Shown here in pieces: positions 3,701 to 41,240 of a DNA stretch of 64,000 nucleotides (its first letter is position 1; each line of letters opens with the position of its first letter). The DNA is from a virus, in the IMG/VR virus record IMGVR_UViG_3300005613_000027, positions 1 to 64,000 of that record. One strand, given 5' to 3'. The translations under genes and the position numbers were made by a program. A model generated the notes under the pieces. That model saw nothing but the letters and a program-made list of their open reading frames with translations, searched no databases and was not told where the DNA came from.

Positions 3701-4639
3701 TTACACTTCAGTATATGTAACTAAATCAAAACTTATTTTAGATCTATAAGCATTTAGATCGCTTAACATAACTTCATCCCTTGCTCTAGTCATAATTAAT
3801 GGTAAATTAACATGCCTAGCTGTTACATTCTCAAACTGCATATAACCTACATATCCTTTTATACCGCTTCTATCAAATAAAGTGGTTAGTTTATTCATGT
3901 TTTCTTTTCTTCCATACCAAGTACCATCATAATCTAAAATTGTTCCTAATGGAAAATCAAATAATATATAACTTCTCAAATATAATCCATCATAAAGTGT
4001 TTCCACTAAATCATTTCTTTCAGCGGTATTAGATGCAAATACATGTATATCAACCTTTCTTGTAATTTTTTTACCAGGGCCTAATTGATACCCAGTCTTG
4101 TCAGTACCATGAATATCTACAACAACAACAGGTGGATCGGCTGCTTCAATGGCTGCCCATTCATCAACTAAACTTACATAATGCCAGTAATAATCAACAG
4201 ATGTAGGCGTCACAGTACCTGAAGTTATTACTCTTCCATCTAAATAATCTATCATATATTCACTATCACTAATACCACTTCCTAAAGGATCGTATACAGT
4301 TATCCTATCAGACTGCTCAGGCGTACCTGTAATTGTTGTACCATCAGCCCTTGTACCCACTACTGTTGCAAAAGGTTCACATCTATTATCAACACTTGAA
4401 ACTGAATCAAGATACGCCCACCCTCTACCTCTTTCTGTAGGGGTCGGAACCATATCTGTTAATGCCACATATACATAACTATCATAACTGTTTGTAGTAC
4501 TATTCCAAGAAGACAATTCTTCTGAAAATTCTAAAGGGATACCCTCTTCTATCTCAATAAAATTACACAGAACCACTTCTTTAAGATAATAATATAAACT
4601 TAAGTCTTCTTTTCTAAAACTTTTCATTTCATAGCTCAT
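3701..4639 (-). CDS. Virion structural protein near the head-tail junction
   Basis: This 312-residue protein has an N-terminal helical part (residues ~1-25) and then a beta-rich part with many Y, D and T (IDYLDGRVITSGTV). A C-terminal module carries VVVVDIHGTDKTGYQLG and KVDIHVFASN. The ATG overlaps the previous stop by one base, so it is translated with the 213-residue gene before it. Its place between connector-like genes and the tail tube fits a tail terminator or neck protein. I do not recognise the family. Confidence 0.6.
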   Translation of the reverse strand: MSYEMKSFRKEDLSLYYYLKEVVLCNFIEIEEGIPLEFSEELSSWNSTTNSYDSYVYVALTDMVPTPTERGRGWAYLDSVSSVDNRCEPFATVVGTRADGTTITGTPEQSDRITVYDPLGSGISDSEYMIDYLDGRVITSGTVTPTSVDYYWHYVSLVDEWAAIEAADPPVVVVDIHGTDKTGYQLGPGKKITRKVDIHVFASNTAERNDLVETLYDGLYLRSYILFDFPLGTILDYDGTWYGRKENMNKLTTLFDRSGIKGYVGYMQFENVTARHVNLPLIMTRARDEVMLSDLNAYRSKISFDLVTYTEV

Positions 4640-5280
4640 TATACTGACCTCTTATATCTTTTAATTGCTGTTTTAGTTGCTGTTTTAACCCATCTATCAA
4701 AATTATCTTTTACCCAACCTATTCCCTCGTCTAATATACGAATAGGAGGAGTATTAGAAAAAGGATATCTAGTTAAATAATTTCTTCTGCCAAATACTCT
4801 TAATTCTGCTGATCTTACATTTGCATCATACCTCATTAAATATATTATTTCTTTTTTAGGCACACTTGTATCTAAAGGTTCTCTACTTATAATTTTTTTA
4901 CCAAACATTTTTTCATAATCATCAAGAGACACCTCGACATAAACACCAGCAGTTCCTTCTAAAATTTGTTCAATAACTCTCATTTTACTACCACTAAAAT
5001 CAAAAGTATCCATGTCTGGCACCACAAACCTATATCCACCCTTAACTTCTTCAATATATTCAAAACTATTTAATCTTTGTATAAATTCATCTCTATATTT
5101 TGGAAGTAAAGGGTTCGTTTTACTTTTCCTATTACGAACCACCAATTCAGTATCATAAGTAATCATTATAACATCCTTTACTTCCTCAACACCTTGTTCA
5201 AATTCCTTATATAATTCTTCTTTTACCATAGAATCATATAACTTTATTGTTTTAACTACTGATCCGTGTAAATTTTTCAC
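4639..5280 (-). CDS. Unknown neck or tail-completion candidate
   Basis: This 213-residue mixed alpha/beta protein is basic at the C-terminus (KTATKTAIKRYKRSV). It starts one base after the preceding stop and overlaps the next gene. The long N-terminal helix (VKEELYKEFEQGVEEV) and the position between head-tail adaptor candidates and the tail tube gene suggest a neck or tail-completion role, in the manner of HK97 gp10-type proteins. No motif confirms that. Confidence 0.55.
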   Translation of the reverse strand: MKNLHGSVVKTIKLYDSMVKEELYKEFEQGVEEVKDVIMITYDTELVVRNRKSKTNPLLPKYRDEFIQRLNSFEYIEEVKGGYRFVVPDMDTFDFSGSKMRVIEQILEGTAGVYVEVSLDDYEKMFGKKIISREPLDTSVPKKEIIYLMRYDANVRSAELRVFGRRNYLTRYPFSNTPPIRILDEGIGWVKDNFDRWVKTATKTAIKRYKRSV

Positions 5281-6830: not shown

Positions 6831-7517
6831 TTACACCTCCATTAAACCTTTGTCTTCGTATTCATCATGATATCTACATTTATATCCCTTATGATGGTTT
6901 CGTTTCTTTTTAGCACATTTAACCAAATGTGAAGCACATAAATTATATTTTCTACAAAAATCCCGTATTCCTTTTATTACAAACTCATTACCATTTAAAT
7001 CTGTTATAACATATTTTTTAGATGTTGGATTATCTGGTCCAAAAACCCTAAAAAATACATGATCAGAGCCCTTCGGAATATTAGTAAGTTGCTTCGTCCT
7101 GGCTTCATAAGAAAGCTTTCTTCCTTTATTAGCATTAGAAATTTTTTTACGGGTTTCTATACTTACCTTCCTACCCAAAGCTTTTTTAGCTATTTTCATT
7201 TTTGTTTTTTTAGACAGTTTACGGCCAAATGAACCATTACCGCCGTATGATAAATTATAACCACCGTTGCTAAAAGAATTATATTGTTTAACATAATGAA
7301 ATTCCATTTCATCTAATTCTTCTTTAGAATCACAATGTTCTAAGATTTCCCAATCAAAATTTTCTTTGCTATATTTTTTTATAGCTCTTCTAAAATAATA
7401 ATCAACAGTTGAATTTTCATGTCTGTATCTTCGCTTAGACAATTTTTCAACAGTTTGACCTATGTAAATTTTTCCATTAACCTTATTAACCGCTTTATAT
7501 ATTATACCAAAATTCAT
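6831..7517 (-). CDS. GIY-YIG homing endonuclease with NUMOD-type repeats
   Basis: This 228-residue protein begins with a GIY-YIG nuclease domain: IIYKAVN at residues 5-11 and KIYIGQT at about 16-22, then conserved R and H positions and a Glu in the EMEFHYVKQY helix. After it come NUMOD3-type DNA-binding repeats (GRKLSKKTKMKIAKKALGRK, GRKLSYEARTKQ) and a C-terminal NUMOD1-like helix-turn-helix (IRDFCRKYNLCASHL). It fills the space between two structural genes almost exactly (1 and 9 bases). Its role is to cut DNA lacking the gene and so spread it. It is intact. Confidence 0.9.
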   Translation of the reverse strand: MNFGIIYKAVNKVNGKIYIGQTVEKLSKRRYRHENSTVDYYFRRAIKKYSKENFDWEILEHCDSKEELDEMEFHYVKQYNSFSNGGYNLSYGGNGSFGRKLSKKTKMKIAKKALGRKVSIETRKKISNANKGRKLSYEARTKQLTNIPKGSDHVFFRVFGPDNPTSKKYVITDLNGNEFVIKGIRDFCRKYNLCASHLVKCAKKKRNHHKGYKCRYHDEYEDKGLMEV

Positions 7518-9833: not shown

Positions 9834-10601
9834 TTATACACATACCTCCTGAGCTAAAGATCCAGTTGAACATTCATCTTTATGCCCATATTTATAATGG
9901 CATTCTTCACAACAAGCAACTCCATAATCTGGATCTAATGCGAAAAAAGGTTCTAATTTCTTTGGCTTAATATGATGCGCATCAGTAGCTTTTTTACCAC
10001 AATACTCACATTCATAATTTACTCTTTGTAACACTTCTTTCCTCCAAATATATAATTCACCATTTGTATATTCATGAGATTTTTTAAAACCTCTTGGATA
10101 TTTTGATTGTCCATATATTTCACAATTATACTTACACACATCCGAACAATATAAATAACACTGCCCGTGTTTTTCTTTATTTAAAGCACGAGATCTATAT
10201 TTAACAGCATCCCTAGTAGGCATAAACCATTTTTTACATTTTTTACATTTTACTTGTAATAATTTTATTCCACCTTCAAAAATATATCTTACTTCCTCAA
10301 CCCAATCAATTTGATGTGCGAAAGTATCAAACAACGGTAGATTTCTTTGTACAACTCCTATATGCCTTTTCTTCTGTGACTCGCTCATTTTAATTCTAGT
10401 CTCAACTGAAGGAATTTTTCCAGTTTGAAAATGTTTAGAACGACAAGATTTAGAACAAAACTCACCTTTATTATCAGATCTACTTAAATAAGAATCATTA
10501 CACCATTTACAATTATTCATATAAACATATTTTTGGCGGCGATAATACCAATTACCATTTTTATACTTTAATTTATTCAAATTATCCCAACAAATTTTCA
10601 T
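9834..10601 (-). CDS. HNH homing endonuclease, MKICWDNL family
   Basis: This 255-residue protein starts MKICWDNL, where the ATG overlaps the upstream stop as TAATG. An ATG five codons upstream would overlap the previous gene more. It has N-terminal Cys pairs (CKWC, CSKSC), a middle Cys cluster (CKKCKKW) and a C-terminal HNH domain: CEYCGKKATDAHHIKPK, then CCEECHYKYGH. The catalytic HH and zinc Cys pairs are all present, so it should be active. Its stop directly abuts the ATG of the PKD-like fibre gene. It shares its opening residues and HNH end with the gene at 11583-12440. Confidence 0.9.
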   Translation of the reverse strand: MKICWDNLNKLKYKNGNWYYRRQKYVYMNNCKWCNDSYLSRSDNKGEFCSKSCRSKHFQTGKIPSVETRIKMSESQKKRHIGVVQRNLPLFDTFAHQIDWVEEVRYIFEGGIKLLQVKCKKCKKWFMPTRDAVKYRSRALNKEKHGQCYLYCSDVCKYNCEIYGQSKYPRGFKKSHEYTNGELYIWRKEVLQRVNYECEYCGKKATDAHHIKPKKLEPFFALDPDYGVACCEECHYKYGHKDECSTGSLAQEVCV

Positions 10602-11050
10602 TATGGTTGACCCCATGTGATAACATAAGGGGCAGACCCCCCAATTATTTTAATCCAAAAACCTGATATCTCTCTATGCACACCATCATCATACATAAGT
10701 TGCCAATTATGAATACTTGATGTCGGTGTAGATCCTACAACATAACTATAAAACGCTTGTACATCACCAAGATATGTGTTTGCTACCTCCACTACTCCAG
10801 CTCCGTATAAATCAGTTATTTGGTCTAATACATAATTCTCAAACTTTGCTACTGTAGTATCATCGTGCACATGTTGATGTGTTGTAGAATTCCAGTAGCC
10901 GTGCTCGACGGGAATGGCTGCAAGTTGCCAACCAAATTCTAATTGAATGGAGCCACTACCTATACCACTACATATCGTACCTGACTCAACGCACGGTACT
11001 GTAAAGAAATCATATCCAACAGTAGAGGTATAACGAAGATCCATTCCCAT
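10601..11050 (-). CDS. Small virion protein in the fibre block
   Basis: This 149-residue beta-rich protein contains GTICSGIGSGSIQLEFGWQLA and a central helical part (VAKFENYVLDQITDLYG). It ends EISGFWIKIIGGSAPYVITWGQP. Its start overlaps the stop of the 176-residue gene before it. Its stop overlaps the start of a homing HNH gene. It is probably a small structural or fibre-associated protein; the family is not recognised. Confidence 0.55.
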   Translation of the reverse strand: MGMDLRYTSTVGYDFFTVPCVESGTICSGIGSGSIQLEFGWQLAAIPVEHGYWNSTTHQHVHDDTTVAKFENYVLDQITDLYGAGVVEVANTYLGDVQAFYSYVVGSTPTSSIHNWQLMYDDGVHREISGFWIKIIGGSAPYVITWGQP

Positions 11051-11582: not shown

Positions 11583-12440
11583 TTAACCTCCACTACCACA
11601 GACAACACTAGACAAAATATAAGCAGCACATTCGTCTTTATGTCCATATTTATTATGACATTTTTTACAACAAGCAATTCCATAATCCGGGTCTAAGGCG
11701 AAAAAAGGTTCTAATTTCTTAGGTTTAATGTGATGAGCGTTCTCCGCATTTTCACCACAATATTCACATTCATAGTTGGCTCTTCTAAATACCTCATCTC
11801 TCCATACTTTGTATTCATTATCAGTATAGTATTTGTCTTGTTTATATCCTTTTGGATATTTTTTCTGATTAAAAAGCTCACAGGAAACTCTACAACCATC
11901 AGAACAATAGAATCTACATCCACCACCCTTTTTATTATTCAATACTCTTATTCTTCTATGAACTGAAGAAGTGGTTGGTGTAAACCATTTTCCGCATTTA
12001 GTACATTTTATCTGTAGTATTCTCAATCCATTTTCGATTATACATTTAGTTTCCTCAGCCCACTCTAATTGTACATTATAAGTATCATACAAAGGAATAT
12101 TTTTTTCTTTAACCCCGCCTTTCCAACGATGACTTTTTTCACCTGATTGCCTTTGAACAATTTGCTTTATATGCTCATCAGACAATTTTCTGCCCTTTAA
12201 AGAATTAGACAATTTTGTTAAAGTTTGTTTAGATTTAACTATCCCTTTGCTATAATTATTTCCAAACTTAGTAGTATCATAACATTCACCAGTACAAAAC
12301 TTAGCATCTTTATGTGGCGACAAGAATGGTTCATTACACACTTCACATGTGTCTATTTCCCAAATGGTTTGTAATCCTTTTCTTAGATTACCTCTATTAG
12401 ATAAATAAACTCCTTCTAAATTGTCCCAACAAATCTTCAT
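11583..12440 (-). CDS. HNH homing endonuclease with NUMOD3 motif
   Basis: This 285-residue protein starts MKICWDNLEGVYLSNRG, the same opening as the gene at 9834-10601. It carries zinc Cys pairs (CEVC, CTGEC), a NUMOD3 DNA-binding motif (LKGRKLSDEHIKQIVQ), a second Cys cluster (CTKCGKWF) and a C-terminal HNH domain (CEYCGENAENAHHIKPK, CCKKCHNKYGH). All catalytic residues are present. It sits between two structural genes, two bases from the downstream start. The two paralogs probably came from duplication or separate invasions by one family. Confidence 0.9.
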   Translation of the reverse strand: MKICWDNLEGVYLSNRGNLRKGLQTIWEIDTCEVCNEPFLSPHKDAKFCTGECYDTTKFGNNYSKGIVKSKQTLTKLSNSLKGRKLSDEHIKQIVQRQSGEKSHRWKGGVKEKNIPLYDTYNVQLEWAEETKCIIENGLRILQIKCTKCGKWFTPTTSSVHRRIRVLNNKKGGGCRFYCSDGCRVSCELFNQKKYPKGYKQDKYYTDNEYKVWRDEVFRRANYECEYCGENAENAHHIKPKKLEPFFALDPDYGIACCKKCHNKYGHKDECAAYILSSVVCGSGG

Positions 12441-33844: not shown

Positions 33845-35662
33845 TTATTCTTGCAATCTTGCCAATTCTAATTGACGCTTAAATTCTATAAACTGTTCAT
33901 CAGTCATTTCTTTAGCAATCTCGGCAACCGTTTTTGGCTTAGCTGTTTTAGGTTTTGGTTTTGTGTCAACTGTCCGTTTTTTAGCAGGCTGACCTTTAGG
34001 TCTTCCTGATGATGGTGTCCCTATAGGCGCTCGTTGAGTAGGCTGTACGGCAGGCCCCATTTTAGCTTGTTGCCAAGGAGAACCTAAAATACCAAATGTG
34101 CCATCATCCACTAATGGAAATTCTTCTTTCATGTTCATAAGCTCTGTAGGGTAGTCAAAACCAAGAGCCTCATGAGCAGTGCGATAACTCAACATTCTAC
34201 GATCTACAAGTTGTGATATTGTATTCATGTATAATATAACATCCTGTAATATTCCCTCATCCCACCTAATTTTAGGAAAACGATCAAAACCCGCAGCTTC
34301 AGCAATCTGTCTATATTCATTATATATCCAACGTGTGACTTGTCTACGAGCATAATTTATTTCTTCCATCAGACCTTTAACCACTAAACCAGCTTCAGCC
34401 ACATTTAAATCAGATATACCATCTATCAAAGCTCTAGACATAGCCAAACCACCAGTTAAGTCTTCATTGACTTGTTGATATTTTTCTTGGCCTAATATAG
34501 CCTCAATTTCAGGTGATACTACCTTTTCAATTTGTAAAGTATGATTCCACACAACATCGAAAGATTTGCTTGAAGTGTTAAACAATTGAGCTACAGCCTC
34601 TAATTCCCCTTGAGTAGTAACTGGATATTCATCTGAACCTATGGTTACCTTTAGAATATAATTAGAAATACCATCCAATGTACTTAAATCCGCTTCTTTA
34701 AGAGATTTCTTATACTCTATTGTGTCAAATACCCTAGTAGCTCTTGGTTTTGCATACCTTTCGTAAGGCATTTTTCTATAAGTTATTGTACCAACCAATC
34801 TAGGATCAAGCTTATATTCCTGGCCTGATTTAGCTGCTTGCTTCAAATCACTAGGCAGAGCTTTTATCAAAAGTTTTTCTTCTTCTGTTAACTCTCCAGT
34901 AGCTTTTTGTAGCATAGCAGTTAATTCGGGCGGGGGTCTTAATGCAACAGCAACTTTATCAAACAATAAGTTACCTACAACATTAACCAGTTGAGGATTT
35001 AAAATAGTATAAGATACTGGTAAATGGCCTTTTGACCATATATTCTTTTTAGCCGCTTTTTCAGCTTCTTTCTTTAACATTTCTCCAGTAGCTTTAGATT
35101 TTTTTGTAGGTTTTTTCATTTTCTGCCCTGGAACGGGTGATAGGTGGGATACTCTAGGTTCGTATTTTGCTAACACTTTATATGTAACAACATGGCCAAT
35201 TTTGAAAAAATCTAAATAAAGCCACTCCAACATTTCAGCCATGTTTACATCAAAACACCAAGTGTCAAAAAATTGTTTTATATTTTCATCATCTATATCA
35301 TTCTCAAAACCTTTTGTTGCTAAAGAAGCTAATATATTTACTACAGTTCCAACTAATGGATCTGTATAATAATACCTATCTGCTCTTCTAAACAACTCTT
35401 GTGGTGATTCATCATATGGATCTCTCTTAGCCAAATCAAGAAAAGTCCTATCCACCGCATCTCTTGTAATAGTAGCTGCTTTTTCTCTAAAATGTCTTGG
35501 AACAACAGCACCCTGTTCAAGAAATGCTAATGATTTTTTCGTTGGATCTAAATAGAAAGTAGATTGTCCGGTTTTCTCATTCACTTCTATATTTCTTATA
35601 CCCACATCAGGATATTCCTTTCTTAATGTGGCTGTAACCTTTTTTATTGTATTATCATCCAT
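33845..35662 (-). CDS. Portal protein
   Basis: This 605-residue protein lies two genes after TerL, ahead of the protease and scaffold genes. Portal-type features are the front RRADRYYYTDPLVGTVVNIL, helical wing segments with EWLYLDFFKIGHVVTYKVL, and SRALIDGISDLNVAEAGL followed by KGLMEEINYARRQVTRWIY. A Lys/Pro-rich C-terminus (PSSGRPKGQPAKKRTVDTKP) precedes the last helix. It forms the dodecameric head vertex through which DNA is packaged. Assignment rests on gene order and the helical layout. Confidence 0.8.
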   Translation of the reverse strand: MDDNTIKKVTATLRKEYPDVGIRNIEVNEKTGQSTFYLDPTKKSLAFLEQGAVVPRHFREKAATITRDAVDRTFLDLAKRDPYDESPQELFRRADRYYYTDPLVGTVVNILASLATKGFENDIDDENIKQFFDTWCFDVNMAEMLEWLYLDFFKIGHVVTYKVLAKYEPRVSHLSPVPGQKMKKPTKKSKATGEMLKKEAEKAAKKNIWSKGHLPVSYTILNPQLVNVVGNLLFDKVAVALRPPPELTAMLQKATGELTEEEKLLIKALPSDLKQAAKSGQEYKLDPRLVGTITYRKMPYERYAKPRATRVFDTIEYKKSLKEADLSTLDGISNYILKVTIGSDEYPVTTQGELEAVAQLFNTSSKSFDVVWNHTLQIEKVVSPEIEAILGQEKYQQVNEDLTGGLAMSRALIDGISDLNVAEAGLVVKGLMEEINYARRQVTRWIYNEYRQIAEAAGFDRFPKIRWDEGILQDVILYMNTISQLVDRRMLSYRTAHEALGFDYPTELMNMKEEFPLVDDGTFGILGSPWQQAKMGPAVQPTQRAPIGTPSSGRPKGQPAKKRTVDTKPKPKTAKPKTVAEIAKEMTDEQFIEFKRQLELARLQE

Positions 35663-35867: not shown

Positions 35868-36734
35868 TCATTCTCCTTTATGAGTATTAGTTCTCCTATA
35901 TAGAATTGCTTGATACCAAGCCGTGTGCCATTCTCTATCTTTATTTGCGCGCGAATTGCAAGATGTGCATAAAGTTATTAAATTCTCCGGCCCACAATTC
36001 TTTTTGTTGTAATCAATGTGGTGTACACACAATCTATATATATTTCCAAAACAATCTGGATTTAAACATTTGTTACCGTCTCTTTCTTTTATGTAATCTT
36101 TGAATTCTTTGAAAGACCATTCGTGACAGTAGGGTTCACAGGAAATACCACCTTTCCAGTTTGGGTGGTTTTTGCCAGACATATTCACCACTTTACAAGA
36201 AGGACAACGTCTGTTTTGTTGCCAATGCCCCCACACCATACTGTGTTTATGCCCTTTGGGACACTCATATCTAAGTTTAGTTTGGCTATTTTTATAGATT
36301 TTAGATAGTAACTTATATCCTTCTTTCTCAAATTCTCTTTTAATAAATTTAATATTTAATTTTCTATTACCGCTACAATGAGAACATCTATTATTGTTGT
36401 GCATCCAATTATGCCATGAAATTTTATGCAGATGGCCGTTTTCACAAACATATTCTAATTTTTTATAATTATTCTTATATTTGTTTGTTAAAAGAATACA
36501 ATTTTCTTTTTCAAATTCTTTCCGAATAAAATCAACAGTTAATTTTACATTTCCAGCACAATAAGGACATCTATATCCGGCACGCCAATCATTCCATCTT
36601 ATAGAATGTTTATGTCCATTAGAACAAATGTAATCTACTTTTTTATGAGCATTAATATATTCTTTGTTTAATAATCTATATCCTTCTTTTTCAAATTGTT
36701 TTTTCACAAATTCTATAGTTAATCTTTTAGACAT
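35868..36734 (-). CDS. HNH endonuclease with zinc-ribbon repeats
   Basis: This 288-residue protein starts MSKRLTIEFVKKQF; the chosen ATG (36734) avoids overlap with the upstream gene. It has three repeats of ~55 residues (FEKEGYRLLNKEYINAHKKV...YICSNGHKHSIRWNDW...CPYC), each with GHxHxIxWxxW and a Cys pair. A C-terminal HNH domain follows (CLNPDCFGNIYRLCVHHIDYN...CTSCNSR). The same repeat precedes a different nuclease at 42456. It is a mobile homing-type gene inserted between portal and terminase genes. Confidence 0.85.
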   Translation of the reverse strand: MSKRLTIEFVKKQFEKEGYRLLNKEYINAHKKVDYICSNGHKHSIRWNDWRAGYRCPYCAGNVKLTVDFIRKEFEKENCILLTNKYKNNYKKLEYVCENGHLHKISWHNWMHNNNRCSHCSGNRKLNIKFIKREFEKEGYKLLSKIYKNSQTKLRYECPKGHKHSMVWGHWQQNRRCPSCKVVNMSGKNHPNWKGGISCEPYCHEWSFKEFKDYIKERDGNKCLNPDCFGNIYRLCVHHIDYNKKNCGPENLITLCTSCNSRANKDREWHTAWYQAILYRRTNTHKGE

Positions 36735-36744
36735 AACTTTTTCC

Positions 36745-37695
36745 TTAGAAAGGCACTGAAAACGAAACACCATATGACATTTCACCTTCAGTATCCCAGG
36801 CCATAGTAGGACCTAAAAACATGTTCTCTACTAATGGAACTATATTACCAAAATTCCATTGTACTGGTGTAAATCCAAAAACAGCCTCAGAACTATCGTT
36901 TTTATTAGCTATACCTATGGAGGGTATGATAAATCTCCAGTCCATGTCTCTTTTGGTTTTACCGTAAGACATCACACTTAAATCCAACGATGGTGCAAAA
37001 ACTTCACTTGTAAACATTGCTTGGAACGCCAATCTTGGATTCCAGAAGAAAAAATGTCTTTCGGTTATTGGATTTTTAGCCCATTCTATACTATTAATTT
37101 TGACAGGATATTTATTACCTTTTGTTTCTTTCATTTGATTATTCGTTATATTAAGTTCTACATATCTGGCATATTTACCAGATGGCTGTTCTGTTTCAAT
37201 AATATATGTTTCAAATTTTATAGGATAAGTTCCTGTTTTCCATAACTTCTCAGGATCATCTTGATTAGGATGAAACATGGCCCACGCTATAGGAAACTTA
37301 GTGCCATCAGACGCTGTAGCATAAATCTTTTTGAAATGATGGTCTGTCTTTTTTCCTGTGAGATACACATGAGATGATGTTCTATTAAGAAGATCTCTTG
37401 TCTGTTTAAGTTCGGCTTCTATTCTTGCTATCTCATCAATCTTTTCATTCCTCTTACGCACTTCCGCCAAAATCTTACTGTTAGAATCCTCTAACTTTTC
37501 TTTTAATTCCTGAACTTGTCTTTTGCTTGCTTCGAACTCCACACGCCAAGCGTTATCTGTTATTTGTACAATCTGTGGGGCTGGAGGTATAGGTGGTTTT
37601 AGCATTTCTAATATGTATTCAAATTTATTATATAAAAATCCTACTACTATTATTATTATTACTACTTTTACTATACCTAGAACTTTATCAAACAT
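36745..37695 (-). CDS. Membrane-anchored coiled-coil protein with outer-membrane-like end
   Basis: This protein has about 316 residues and starts MFDKVLGIVKV; earlier in-frame ATGs at 37710 and 37743 lie inside the HNH remnant. Residues ~8-20 are a very hydrophobic span (VVIIIIVVGFLY). It is followed by a Pro-rich linker, then a coiled coil (FEASKRQVQELKEKLEDSNS to ARIEAELKQTRDLL). The last ~190 residues are beta-rich and end GVSFSVPF, with a terminal Phe as in outer membrane barrels. It could span a Gram-negative periplasm. I do not know the function. Confidence 0.6.
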   Translation of the reverse strand: MFDKVLGIVKVVIIIIVVGFLYNKFEYILEMLKPPIPPAPQIVQITDNAWRVEFEASKRQVQELKEKLEDSNSKILAEVRKRNEKIDEIARIEAELKQTRDLLNRTSSHVYLTGKKTDHHFKKIYATASDGTKFPIAWAMFHPNQDDPEKLWKTGTYPIKFETYIIETEQPSGKYARYVELNITNNQMKETKGNKYPVKINSIEWAKNPITERHFFFWNPRLAFQAMFTSEVFAPSLDLSVMSYGKTKRDMDWRFIIPSIGIANKNDSSEAVFGFTPVQWNFGNIVPLVENMFLGPTMAWDTEGEMSYGVSFSVPF

Positions 37696-37774
37696 ATGTT
37701 TTATACCCATTATTTTTATGATGCTCATTATGACATTCAACACACAAAGTCATCCCGTTCTCCAAATCAAATAA
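37688..37774 (-). pseudogene. 3' remnant of an HNH homing endonuclease
   Basis: Directly past the tnpB right end, the minus strand reads LFDLENGMTLCVECHNEHH and ends NNGYKTYV then TGA. This is the typical last segment of an HNH domain (FDLxNGxTLCxxCHxxxH). The stop overlaps the start of the next gene (ATGTTTGA). No start or front is attached. The N-terminal end of a gene of the same family lies on the other side of tnpB at 38985-39134. Confidence 0.7.
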
Positions 37775-37778
37775 TGAA

Positions 37779-38963
37779 CTACCACGAAACTAAAGATTTC
37801 GTGGTTTCCTGCTTCAATGGAAAACTATAGTCTTCCTCCACAGGCATGAATTCGGGTTGTCCCATCCCTATTTTTTTTATATTATTACTTGCTAATATAT
37901 CCCTATCATGAGTTGTATTGCAGTTAGAGCAAGTCCATTCTCTATCACTAAGTTTCAATTTATGATTGATTTCCCCGCAAGAACATAACTTACTGCTTGG
38001 TTCATATTGACCAATTTGTATGAAGTTCTTGCCATACCAGTCACACTTGTACTTGATCATAGAAACAAACTCACCCCAACCTACATCACTGATTGATTGA
38101 GATAACCACCTATTTTGTTGCATTCCCTTTATATCAAGGGTTTCCATAACAAGGGTGTTCGTTTGGTTATCACGAACTAAGGTAGTAGAAACCTTGTGGT
38201 GGAAATCTTTTCTTGCATTAGTTACTTGTTCATATTTACGAGCAAGTTTAACTTTTGCTTTTTGTCTGTTATTGCTTCCTTTCTGTTTTCTTGCTAGGTT
38301 GCGTTGACTTCGTTTGAGTGCTTTCAACTTATGTTTCAAGTAACGAGGATTATCTATCTTTTCTCCTTTACTTGTAGTAAGAAAGTGAGATATTCCAAGA
38401 TCTATTCCAATAGTAGTATCTCCACTCATTGGTGCTTTAGTTGGTAACTCTTGTCCATCTTCAACTAAAATAGAGATATAATATTTACCAGTTGGAGTTC
38501 TACTTATCGTACAAGTTTTCATTTCTCCATCAAACTTACGATGAGCATCAAACCTCAAGTTTTTAATTTTTGGAACTTGTATTGTTTTTGTTTCGAAATC
38601 TATTTTAGTTGTAGAAGAAGGAGGGATCTCAAATGATTGGTTTGAATTATGTTTAGATTTGAACTTAGGGAAACCTTTCTTTTCACGAAAGAATCTAACA
38701 TATGCCATATCTAAGTGGATCAAACTTGCTTGTAATGTTTGAGAATTAACTTCAGATAACCAATTGGTTTCTTCTTGTTTTTTCATTAGTGGAAGTTGTT
38801 TCTGAATATCAAACCTACTTAGTGTTTTCTTTTCTTGTTCATAGATCTTAATTTTTTGACCAAGTGCGTAGTTATAGATAAAACGAGAACAACCTAAGTG
38901 TTTTTCAATTAACACTCGTTGTTCCTCGTTTGGGAATAATCTATATTTGTATGCTTTTAACAT
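37779..38963 (-). CDS. tnpB: TnpB RNA-guided nuclease, apparently intact
   Basis: This 394-residue protein has all TnpB hallmarks: helix-turn-helix front (LFPNEEQRVLIEKHLGCSRF), RuvC Asp in TIGIDLGISHF (D188), Glu in VMETLDIKGM (E274), a zinc ribbon (CSCG at 327-330, CSNC at 345-348), and final Asp in HDRDILASNNI (D355). Full length and all three acidic residues suggest an active guide-RNA nuclease. Its 3' end overlaps the right-end hairpin, where the guide RNA would be made. TnpB can promote element retention, and in phages can act like a homing nuclease. Confidence 0.95.
   Translation of the reverse strand: MLKAYKYRLFPNEEQRVLIEKHLGCSRFIYNYALGQKIKIYEQEKKTLSRFDIQKQLPLMKKQEETNWLSEVNSQTLQASLIHLDMAYVRFFREKKGFPKFKSKHNSNQSFEIPPSSTTKIDFETKTIQVPKIKNLRFDAHRKFDGEMKTCTISRTPTGKYYISILVEDGQELPTKAPMSGDTTIGIDLGISHFLTTSKGEKIDNPRYLKHKLKALKRSQRNLARKQKGSNNRQKAKVKLARKYEQVTNARKDFHHKVSTTLVRDNQTNTLVMETLDIKGMQQNRWLSQSISDVGWGEFVSMIKYKCDWYGKNFIQIGQYEPSSKLCSCGEINHKLKLSDREWTCSNCNTTHDRDILASNNIKKIGMGQPEFMPVEEDYSFPLKQETTKSLVSW
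37782..37804 (-). ncRNA. Right-end hairpin, putative guide-RNA scaffold end
   Basis: A perfect 8-bp stem (CCACGAAA with TTTCGTGG) and a 7-base loop span the last codons and stop of tnpB. In IS200/IS605 elements this region is the 3' end of the omega RNA scaffold. The bases just past the element end (from 37774 downward, beginning TTATTTGATTTGGAG) would be the guide. Here that guide would read the HNH remnant. The 5' boundary of the RNA cannot be set by eye. Confidence 0.6.
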
Positions 38964-38984
38964 TCCTATTGTTTCCTTACATCT

Positions 38985-39134
38985 CTATTTATAATAATTA
39001 TCTATATATTTATATTTATGTGTTCCCTTCTGTAAAGTTTCTCTACCTTTTCTCTCATAGTAAAAAACCTTTAACCAAAATCCACTATTTACATCATAAA
39101 TTAAATCATCCAAATTATCCCAACAAATTTTCAT
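38985..39134 (-). pseudogene. 5' remnant of an HNH homing gene of the MKICWDNL family
   Basis: A 49-codon frame starts MKICWDNLDDLIYDVNSG, like the intact HNH genes at 9834 and 11583. Its ATG overlaps the previous stop as TAATG, also as in 9834. After about residue 34 it probably runs into element DNA (GTHKYKYIDNYYK) and stops. The middle of the HNH gene is missing between here and the 3' remnant at 37688, so insertion was accompanied by deletion or followed it. Confidence 0.7.
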
Positions 39135-39439
39135 TATCTATCCGTATCCAATACTTCTTCATAGTTACCATTACCATTTTCGGTCAATTTAGTTCTTGTA
39201 TATATCCTTCCTAAAGCAATAGTTACATATCCACCTCCTAGGAAACCTAATCCAACTGCTGGAGATATTTTGGAAACCCACTGCGTTTCAGTCCATTTAC
39301 CGTCAAAAATTCCGTATATAACAGGAATATAAAGCAATATAAGTATTTGATATTTTACAGAAGCAAAATTTCTGAACACCTTCATTCCTAATAAGGACCA
39401 GAATTTCTTTGAAAAAAATGTAATCTTACCCTCCGTCAT
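39134..39439 (-). CDS. Small membrane protein, holin-like layout
   Basis: This protein has about 101 residues and starts MTEGKITFF, with GGAGGTGAT ahead of the ATG at 39439. There are two hydrophobic spans: residues ~30-46 (YQILILLYIPVIYGIF) and ~60-78 (ISPAVGLGFLGGGYVTIAL). Between them is a charged turn (DGKWTETQW). The C-terminus is hydrophilic and acidic. Size and two spans fit a holin or other phage membrane protein. It lies between TerL and the tnpB locus, so holin is only a possibility. Confidence 0.55.
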   Translation of the reverse strand: MTEGKITFFSKKFWSLLGMKVFRNFASVKYQILILLYIPVIYGIFDGKWTETQWVSKISPAVGLGFLGGGYVTIALGRIYTRTKLTENGNGNYEEVLDTDR

Positions 39440-39488
39440 AATATCACCTCCATTAATAAACAACTCTATTAGTAAGAAGGTTACATTA

Positions 39489-41240
39489 TTACTTTATTTT
39501 CTTTTTCAACACAGCGGCACTTAAATTACGACCAGACGTCCCAACTATAAGAGGTCCCTGAGCATGTTGTAATGCATCTAAAGGATTCCATGTGCTGTTA
39601 ACATTATGAGTTCGCATCATACCGCCTTTAGTAAACAGAATAGGATCACCTTCTTCTTCTAATTCTTTCTCAACCATTCTGGCCCCATATCCAGCGAGTA
39701 TTAACGCTGAATATAAGTCTTTCTTCTGTCCTTTTTTAGGAGTATCAAAATGCAGAAGCCCGCTTGCTGTTTGAGTAACAATTATACTCAACATCTGGGC
39801 TTTAAGTTTCTGTATATTCTCATAAACAATAGCAAACCTATCGTCTGGAGAAACTGGTGGTTCTGGAAATCTTAATCTTTTTTCTTCTAATAAAGATAGT
39901 GTAATGAAATTAGCATCAGAAATCCAGGCCGGATTAAAATTAATCATTTCCAATATATGCAAACCTTTTATATGAAGCTTATCCTTATCAGTCCTGTCAA
40001 TCATTGGTTCATGGCCATTATACCCATCTTCTAATAAATCCATTATAGCTTTTCCGCCACCACCTTTATCTATAAATATTCTTATTATATTATACATTTT
40101 ATATAAATGTTGAATGGCCGTTGTAAGTCCTTGTGTAGTTTTATCTTTTAATTCTAATACATTTACTACCTTATTAATAACTCCTAACTTAATGACTACA
40201 GCACCACAACTTGCTTCCCCGCCCTGATTAGGGTCTACACCTAAAACATATTGAGCTTCTGGATCGCCCCTCAATTCTATGTTAAATCCACTGTCAATAG
40301 TACACCCCTCTAACAATGATGCTTTAAAAAACCCTTCGGAATCTGAAATCATTGCTGCTTCATATTCCATTTTGAATTCATAGCTTGACATAGTACGCTT
40401 TGCTTCAATTATACTATCCTCTACCAGAAACCCCTCTGGCATAAACCAGTAAGGAACTTGATAAACAACATGCCTACAAGTTTCTGGAGGTTCCCTATCC
40501 ATCATATCCCAATGATCTTTCATTCGTCTCCACATATGATTGAATTTAAAAAACCCAGACGATGTCATAACCATTTTATTTACCGATTCTTCTTCAAAAT
40601 CATCTTCCGTAGCCAAACCTTCTGCTATAAGCTTCTTTTGATGTTCTATTCTTCTTACCTTTTCCATAGGCTCTAATGCAACAGCCGCAAATGGCCTAAC
40701 TACTAAATCCAACACCTTGTCTGGTACCTGGGCAAGCTCGTCTATACATATCAAATAAAAACGGGACCCCCTAATCTTGGCCCCGTCAACACCTAATGGT
40801 AAAGCTTCTATGTAAGAACCACTCATACCACCAACAGCTTTAAACTTTAAGAAACACGTATCAGTACCCCTAGTAGGCTTCTTTTCTACAGCCTCGCGTA
40901 TTAAAGCAGATTTGCTATATAACTTTTCAACTTCTGAAAACATCATTTTTGACTGGCGAAAAGTAGGTGCAATTAATCCTACCCTATATCCTGGATAAAG
41001 TAAACAATACAAAACAGCTAACAATCCCTGCATATACGTCTTTCCACATCCACGGCCCATTACAGCAATAACATAATTCTTTATCCACATATCATTAAAA
41101 ACTAGTCTTTGTATAGGAGCCAAATCAGACCTACATAAATCAAATGCTGCTATTGTGGGGTTGTCTCTATAAAATTGGATAAGTTCTACACCTTGTTCAA
41201 ACACCATATCCATGTGCCTCTTGGTCTTTCGTTTGGCCAC
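39489..41240 (-). CDS. terL: Terminase large subunit
   Basis: This 583-residue packaging motor has Walker A GRGCGKT (62-68), Walker B LICIDE (D167, E168), a coupling region near TSSGF, and a C-terminal RNase H-like nuclease with LGVDPNQGG (D336) and IRIFIDKGGGG (D391). It cuts concatemeric phage DNA and drives it into the prohead through the portal. It starts right after the 176-residue gene. All motifs look functional. Confidence 0.95.
   Translation of the reverse strand: MAKRKTKRHMDMVFEQGVELIQFYRDNPTIAAFDLCRSDLAPIQRLVFNDMWIKNYVIAVMGRGCGKTYMQGLLAVLYCLLYPGYRVGLIAPTFRQSKMMFSEVEKLYSKSALIREAVEKKPTRGTDTCFLKFKAVGGMSGSYIEALPLGVDGAKIRGSRFYLICIDELAQVPDKVLDLVVRPFAAVALEPMEKVRRIEHQKKLIAEGLATEDDFEEESVNKMVMTSSGFFKFNHMWRRMKDHWDMMDREPPETCRHVVYQVPYWFMPEGFLVEDSIIEAKRTMSSYEFKMEYEAAMISDSEGFFKASLLEGCTIDSGFNIELRGDPEAQYVLGVDPNQGGEASCGAVVIKLGVINKVVNVLELKDKTTQGLTTAIQHLYKMYNIIRIFIDKGGGGKAIMDLLEDGYNGHEPMIDRTDKDKLHIKGLHILEMINFNPAWISDANFITLSLLEEKRLRFPEPPVSPDDRFAIVYENIQKLKAQMLSIIVTQTASGLLHFDTPKKGQKKDLYSALILAGYGARMVEKELEEEGDPILFTKGGMMRTHNVNSTWNPLDALQHAQGPLIVGTSGRNLSAAVLKKKIK

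What the first reader, a model, noticed from the sequence alone, without database searches (positions are those of the whole stretch)
37688..39134. tnpB element nested in the ruins of an HNH homing gene
On one side of the tnpB element is the front of an MKICWDNL-type HNH gene (38985-39134), on the other is the back of an HNH domain (37688-37774, LENGMTLCVECHNEHH). The middle is missing. So an RNA-guided nuclease element landed in a homing endonuclease gene, replacing one selfish nuclease by another at the same spot. The guide RNA, if made, would be taken from the HNH remnant, so it should target intact relatives of that HNH gene. That would turn TnpB into a weapon against the older homing gene.
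Basis: partly seen in the sequence, partly recalled or inferred. Interest (0 to 1): 0.72.

Follow-up and report, generated by a model that had tools for sequence, protein, structure and literature searches.

The report
tnpB stranded in broken homing gene
In this phage an RNA-guided nuclease gene (tnpB) sits inside the remains of an older selfish DNA-cutting gene (an HNH homing gene), so its guide RNA is read from that older gene; this nesting is real, but no held sequence offers a site it could be expected to cut.

Summary
The two HNH pieces flanking tnpB are the ends of one gene: relative L006 carries a full-length NUMOD3/HNH gene at exactly this site (between a small membrane-protein gene and gene g332) that matches both pieces in order. 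Closer relative L002 has nothing there. TnpB (394 aa) is intact: RuvC D188/E274/D355 and all 39 residues invariant in its family are kept. A model of the right end/omegaRNA, built without the window, finds it at 37893-37774 (E 5e-16), so the guide begins at 37773, in the HNH codons for "(L)FDLENG".

Corrections: about 0.6 kb of the HNH gene is missing, and so is the left end that relatives carry 100-122 nt upstream of tnpB. The element is therefore probably a stranded, immobile TnpB-omegaRNA locus after a deletion. The only full-length HNH gene at this site (L006) has 6/20 guide mismatches and no TTTAN-type TAM, and the exact guide was not found in IMG/VR or GTDB genomes. "Weapon against the older homing gene" thus follows from general TnpB logic but has no demonstrated target.

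The site recurs: relative L066 has a remnant of a different TnpB there. The same virus also encodes an IscB beside a truncated TnpA.

The parts
38985..39134 (-). 5' remnant of an HNH homing-type gene (49-aa ORF); its ATG overlaps the TAA of the upstream gene (TAATG)
   Evidence: 53% identity over 45 aa to the front of the full-length HNH gene of L006 at the same site
38964..38984 (-). short linker; in-frame ...CKE codons (38981-38973) may be further HNH remnant and give an AAGGA Shine-Dalgarno-like motif before tnpB
   Evidence: alignment by eye and local alignment with L006; SD-like motif in 27 of 32 phage genes checked; tentative
37779..38963 (-). tnpB, 394 aa, intact RuvC catalytic residues D188, E274, D355 and zinc finger
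   Evidence: Pfam OrfB_IS605 1.3e-28, Cas12f1-like_TNB 7.4e-20; phrog_506 2.7e-128; ISDra2 TnpB structure 8bf8 E 2.4e-72; no invariant residue lost
37774..37893 (-). right end / omegaRNA (reRNA) scaffold, overlapping the 3' end of tnpB, ending GGTAGTTCAT
   Evidence: covariance model of 18 relatives, window excluded: 74.7 bits, E 5.2e-16; folds better than shuffles, z -2.4
37754..37773 (-). predicted guide, TATTTGATTTGGAGAACGGG, made of HNH codons ((L)FDLENG)
   Evidence: adjacent to the modelled right end; the stretch shifted by one base is unique in the record up to 4 mismatches
37688..37776 (-). 3' remnant of the same HNH gene, including its stop; overlaps the start of g332 (ATG at 37695)
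   Evidence: 59% identity over 27 aa to the end of the L006 HNH gene; coordinates
39134..39463 (-). upstream neighbour: small, apparently membrane-spanning protein, present in relatives
   Evidence: homologs in L002, L005, L006, L007, L009, L059, L061, L065-L067
36745..37743 (-). downstream neighbour g332 (real start probably ATG 37695)
   Evidence: homologs directly after the upstream neighbour in empty-site relatives such as L002

Best explanation
An HNH homing-type gene sat between the small membrane-protein gene and g332. An IS200/IS605-type tnpB element inserted near its 3' end, probably after a TTTAN motif, so the omegaRNA guide became HNH sequence. A later deletion removed the left end, the TAM and about 0.6 kb of the HNH gene, leaving a stranded locus: translatable tnpB, omegaRNA, and a guide that can match only HNH-bearing alleles of this family. 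If expressed, it would cut such an allele in a co-infecting relative, and repair from the flanking genes would copy the tnpB locus over it. Shown: anatomy, one-gene origin of the pieces, intact TnpB and right end, missing left end and HNH middle. Inferred: order of events, TAM, expression, cleavage, drive.
For: L006 has the full-length gene at the same site, L002 the empty site. Right-end model hit ending exactly where HNH homology resumes. Left-end hairpin 100-122 nt upstream of tnpB in many relatives but HNH homology within 45 nt in the window, and no left-end model hit. TnpB intact. TTTAN-type TAM in relatives keeps the HNH frame open before the guide. TnpB is known to take a guide of about 16 nt from the flank and cut TAM-flanked targets (PMC8612924) and to drive insertion-bearing copies in plasmids (PMC11870625).
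Against: No sequenced allele with a matching target and TAM. No expression data. Left ends of some distant relatives are also not found by the model, so the absence rests mainly on spacing. The nearest TnpB relatives are only about 50-59% identical, so selection on this TnpB cannot be measured. Insertion and deletion could have happened in another phage or HNH copy and arrived by recombination.
Confidence: 0.68

Rival explanations
1. Pure relic: the element inserted into a dispensable homing gene, decayed by deletion, and persists only because the HNH tail now overlaps the g332 start and the front overlaps the upstream stop; TnpB has no current role.
For: Left end lost, no matching target known, no intact TnpA in the held part of the record (one truncated copy); HNH tail carries the g332 start; L066 shows a decayed, different TnpB at the same site.
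Against: tnpB is uninterrupted over 394 codons with every family-invariant residue kept and the omegaRNA scaffold is intact.
Confidence: 0.35
2. An active anti-HNH gene drive: TnpB cuts HNH-bearing alleles in co-infecting relatives and replaces them.
For: Guide is HNH sequence in a motif conserved among HNH genes (2-3 mismatches of 16 to unrelated HNH genes L077 and L076); nuclease intact; drive by TnpB shown in plasmids (PMC11870625).
Against: Only known full-length homolog at the site lacks the TAM and has 6/20 mismatches; most relatives are empty and untargetable; exact guide not found in the collections searched.
Confidence: 0.12

Closest known systems
ISDra2 TnpB (IS200/IS605 family), structures 8bf8/8h1j
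   Same: Full-length TnpB homolog with the same RuvC residues; omegaRNA from the tnpB 3' end and right end; guide from the flanking DNA
   Different: No TnpA beside it, left end missing, TTTAN-like rather than TTGAT TAM, located in a phage homing gene
TnpB gene drive of IS200/605 elements in plasmids (PMC11870625)
   Same: Guide records the insertion site and would cut insertion-free copies
   Different: Here the insertion-free copy is a homing gene that most relatives lack; the element can no longer transpose by its own ends; drive not shown
Freestanding HNH/NUMOD3 phage homing genes near terminase (PMC10448857)
   Same: The host gene of the insertion: NUMOD3 plus HNH, between structural genes, present or absent among relatives
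   Different: Broken, with a second nuclease element inside
Intron-encoded homing endonuclease used in interference competition between co-infecting phages (PMC11620839)
   Same: A selfish nuclease that could act against a co-infecting relative
   Different: Protein-guided cutting there; RNA-guided and aimed at another selfish gene here, unproven

Membership tests
IS200/IS605-type TnpB (OMEGA nuclease) | OrfB/TnpB fold with RuvC D-E-D and zinc finger | tested here: met
   by sequence:
IS200/IS605-type TnpB (OMEGA nuclease) | omegaRNA scaffold at the tnpB 3' end and right-end terminus | tested here: met
   covariance model hit E 5.2e-16, ending TTCAT
IS200/IS605-type TnpB (OMEGA nuclease) | RNA-guided cleavage of TAM-flanked target | not testable with these tools
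   needs biochemistry
complete, mobile IS200/IS605 element | left end with subterminal hairpin behind the TAM | tested here: not met
   HNH remnant lies where the left end should be
complete, mobile IS200/IS605 element | TnpA (Y1 transposase) in cis | tested here: not met
   only a truncated Y1 copy about 32 kb away; the record may be a fragment; tnpB-only elements exist in this family
HNH homing-type gene (flanking pieces) | HNH domain plus NUMOD-type DNA-binding region in one gene | tested here: met
   met for the L006 homolog (NUMOD3 2.6e-8, HNH 2.7e-6); the window pieces align to its two ends
HNH homing-type gene (flanking pieces) | sporadic presence at one site among relatives | tested here: met
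   L006 occupied, L002 and others empty
IStron | group I intron around the element | tested here: not met
   no group I intron in Rfam searches
TnpB drive against HNH alleles | intact HNH allele with TAM and matching protospacer | tested here: not met
   none found

The most novel reading that the evidence does not exclude
A TnpB-omegaRNA locus that has given up transposition and spreads by homing between phages, using a guide to a conserved HNH motif to destroy and replace HNH homing genes.
Probability: 0.1. Interest if true: 0.75.

Novelty: new member of a known kind. Interest (0 to 1): 0.42.

Why it matters
It is a clear natural case of one selfish nuclease element nested in another, with occupied, empty and nested states of the same site visible in relatives. 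It makes a testable prediction: whether a TnpB that has lost transposition can still act as a homing nuclease, here against a rival homing gene. If it cannot, the locus shows how TnpB persists as a by-product of insertion.

Tried and rejected
Chance match of the small HNH pieces: rejected by L006. Pieces from two HNH genes: rejected, both match one gene in order. The window's own MKICWDNL paralogs (9834-10616, 11583-12440) as source: rejected, their C-termini differ (FALDPDYG, not FDLENG). Group I intron/IStron: no Rfam hit. Recurrent TnpB-in-HNH association: 60 open segments flanking the defined element ends of about 20 TnpB relatives, no HNH or GIY-YIG domain. Degenerate HNH-tail searches: strict patterns gave nothing; a looser one recovered L006 as positive control plus two unrelated HNH genes without a TTTAN TAM. 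A DNA fold of the left flank is no better than shuffles. A weak mir-26 Rfam hit inside tnpB is chance.

Full report
Setting. The window is 64 kb of an 87,111-base IMG/VR virus record. All genes around the finding are on the minus strand in the order terminase (39489-41240), small membrane protein (39134-39463), HNH front (38985-39134), tnpB (37779-38963), HNH back (37776-37688), g332 (36745-37743), a CapR/HNH gene (35868-36785) and portal (33845-35662).

The HNH pieces are one gene. Ten viral contigs with a related terminase were fetched, and thirteen by g332. L006 (terminase 75% identical) has, between the same two neighbours, an HNH gene of about 850 nt (3864-4713) whose first 45 residues match the window front (53%) and whose last part matches the window back (59% over 27 aa). 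Its front half has NUMOD3 and its back half HNH, as in homing endonucleases. It carries one frameshift at a G run, either a sequencing error or decay. L002, the closest relative (86%), is empty: the stop of the membrane-protein gene overlaps the g332 start. L005, L007, L059, L061, L065 and L067 are also without insertion. So the site is occupied in some relatives and empty in others, as expected of a homing gene. About 619 nt of the HNH gene is absent from the window.

The tnpB element. TnpB is full length and matches ISDra2 TnpB structures (E 2e-72). In an alignment with 35 relatives it keeps all 39 invariant residues, including D188, E274 and D355. A covariance model of the right end from 18 relatives, built without the window, hits 37893-37774 at 74.7 bits, E 5e-16, and ends at TTCAT. 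Relatives end in TTCAC or TTCAT. The next base, 37773, begins HNH sequence, so the guide is TATTTGATTTGGAGAACGGG.

The left end is missing. In relatives a hairpin with a TCTTTAG-like loop lies 100-122 nt before tnpB. In the window HNH homology reaches to within 45 nt of the tnpB start, and perhaps to within 20 nt through an in-frame CKE; no left-end hairpin or model hit exists. Some distant relatives also escape the left-end model, so the spacing is the stronger argument. The simplest history is insertion near the HNH 3' end followed by one deletion covering the HNH middle, the TAM and the left end.

TAM and target. Element copies at different sites put TTTAA-, TTTAT- or TTTAC-like motifs at the left junction. 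TTTAN followed by the guide reads L-[I/L/V]-F-D-L-E-N-G in the HNH frame; L006 has L-M-F-D-L-D-N-G. Insertion at a TTTAN in an intact HNH frame is therefore consistent, though inferred. L006 itself has CCTGA instead of TTTAN and 6/20 mismatches. The 20-nt stretch 37774-37755 (the guide shifted by one base) was not found in IMG/VR or GTDB genomes; both searches may leave out records very near the window's own. No second site within 4 mismatches exists in this record. The guide lies in a motif shared by many HNH genes: two unrelated ones differ at 2-3 of 16 positions but lack the TAM.

Why the remnants stay. The front ATG overlaps the upstream stop (TAATG), and the back overlaps the g332 start (ATG 37695). 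Both remnants may now serve as translation context, which would keep them without any guide function. This is inference.

A recurrent site. L066 has, at the same place, the C-terminal part of a different TnpB (TNB domain E 1.8e-23; only 31% identical over 62 aa to the window TnpB), with GIY-YIG homing genes on both sides of this region. L008 has a LAGLIDADG intein in its terminase. Nuclease genes are known to cluster near terminase genes (PMC10448857).

Mechanism. TnpB takes its guide from the flank and cuts TAM-flanked targets (PMC8612924), and in plasmids this acts as a drive against insertion-free copies (PMC11870625). Applied here, an HNH-bearing, tnpB-free allele would be the only target; empty alleles are immune.

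Verdict. Observation confirmed and extended; interpretation partly supported; known parts in an unusual, well-documented nested arrangement.

Noticed in passing
L074:6673-7956 (-), record position 70673-71956: 427-aa IscB-like gene (RRXRR 1.2e-54, HNH; nearest solved structures are IscB) overlapping a truncated Y1 transposase stump (L074:6506-6712): the same virus carries both OMEGA nuclease types.
   Followed up: partly
L075:767-857 (+), record position 76267-76357: c-di-GMP-I riboswitch, 53.3 bits, E 1.9e-7, in a virus genome; hints at a bacterial host.
   Followed up: no
L066:1603-1986 (+): 5'-truncated remnant of a different TnpB at the same intergenic site in a relative.
   Followed up: partly
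L008:3879-6911 (+): Terminase interrupted by an in-frame LAGLIDADG intein at the Walker A motif.
   Followed up: partly
window 6831-7517, 9834-10616, 11583-12440, 35868-36785 (all -): Four more homing-type nuclease genes (GIY-YIG/NUMOD3, two MKICWDNL HNH genes, CapR/HNH) between structural genes.
   Followed up: partly
L078-L120 (genome contigs): The relatives of this TnpB found in cellular genomes are mostly from methanogenic archaea (Methanosarcinales, Methanomicrobiales), at about 50% identity.
   Followed up: no
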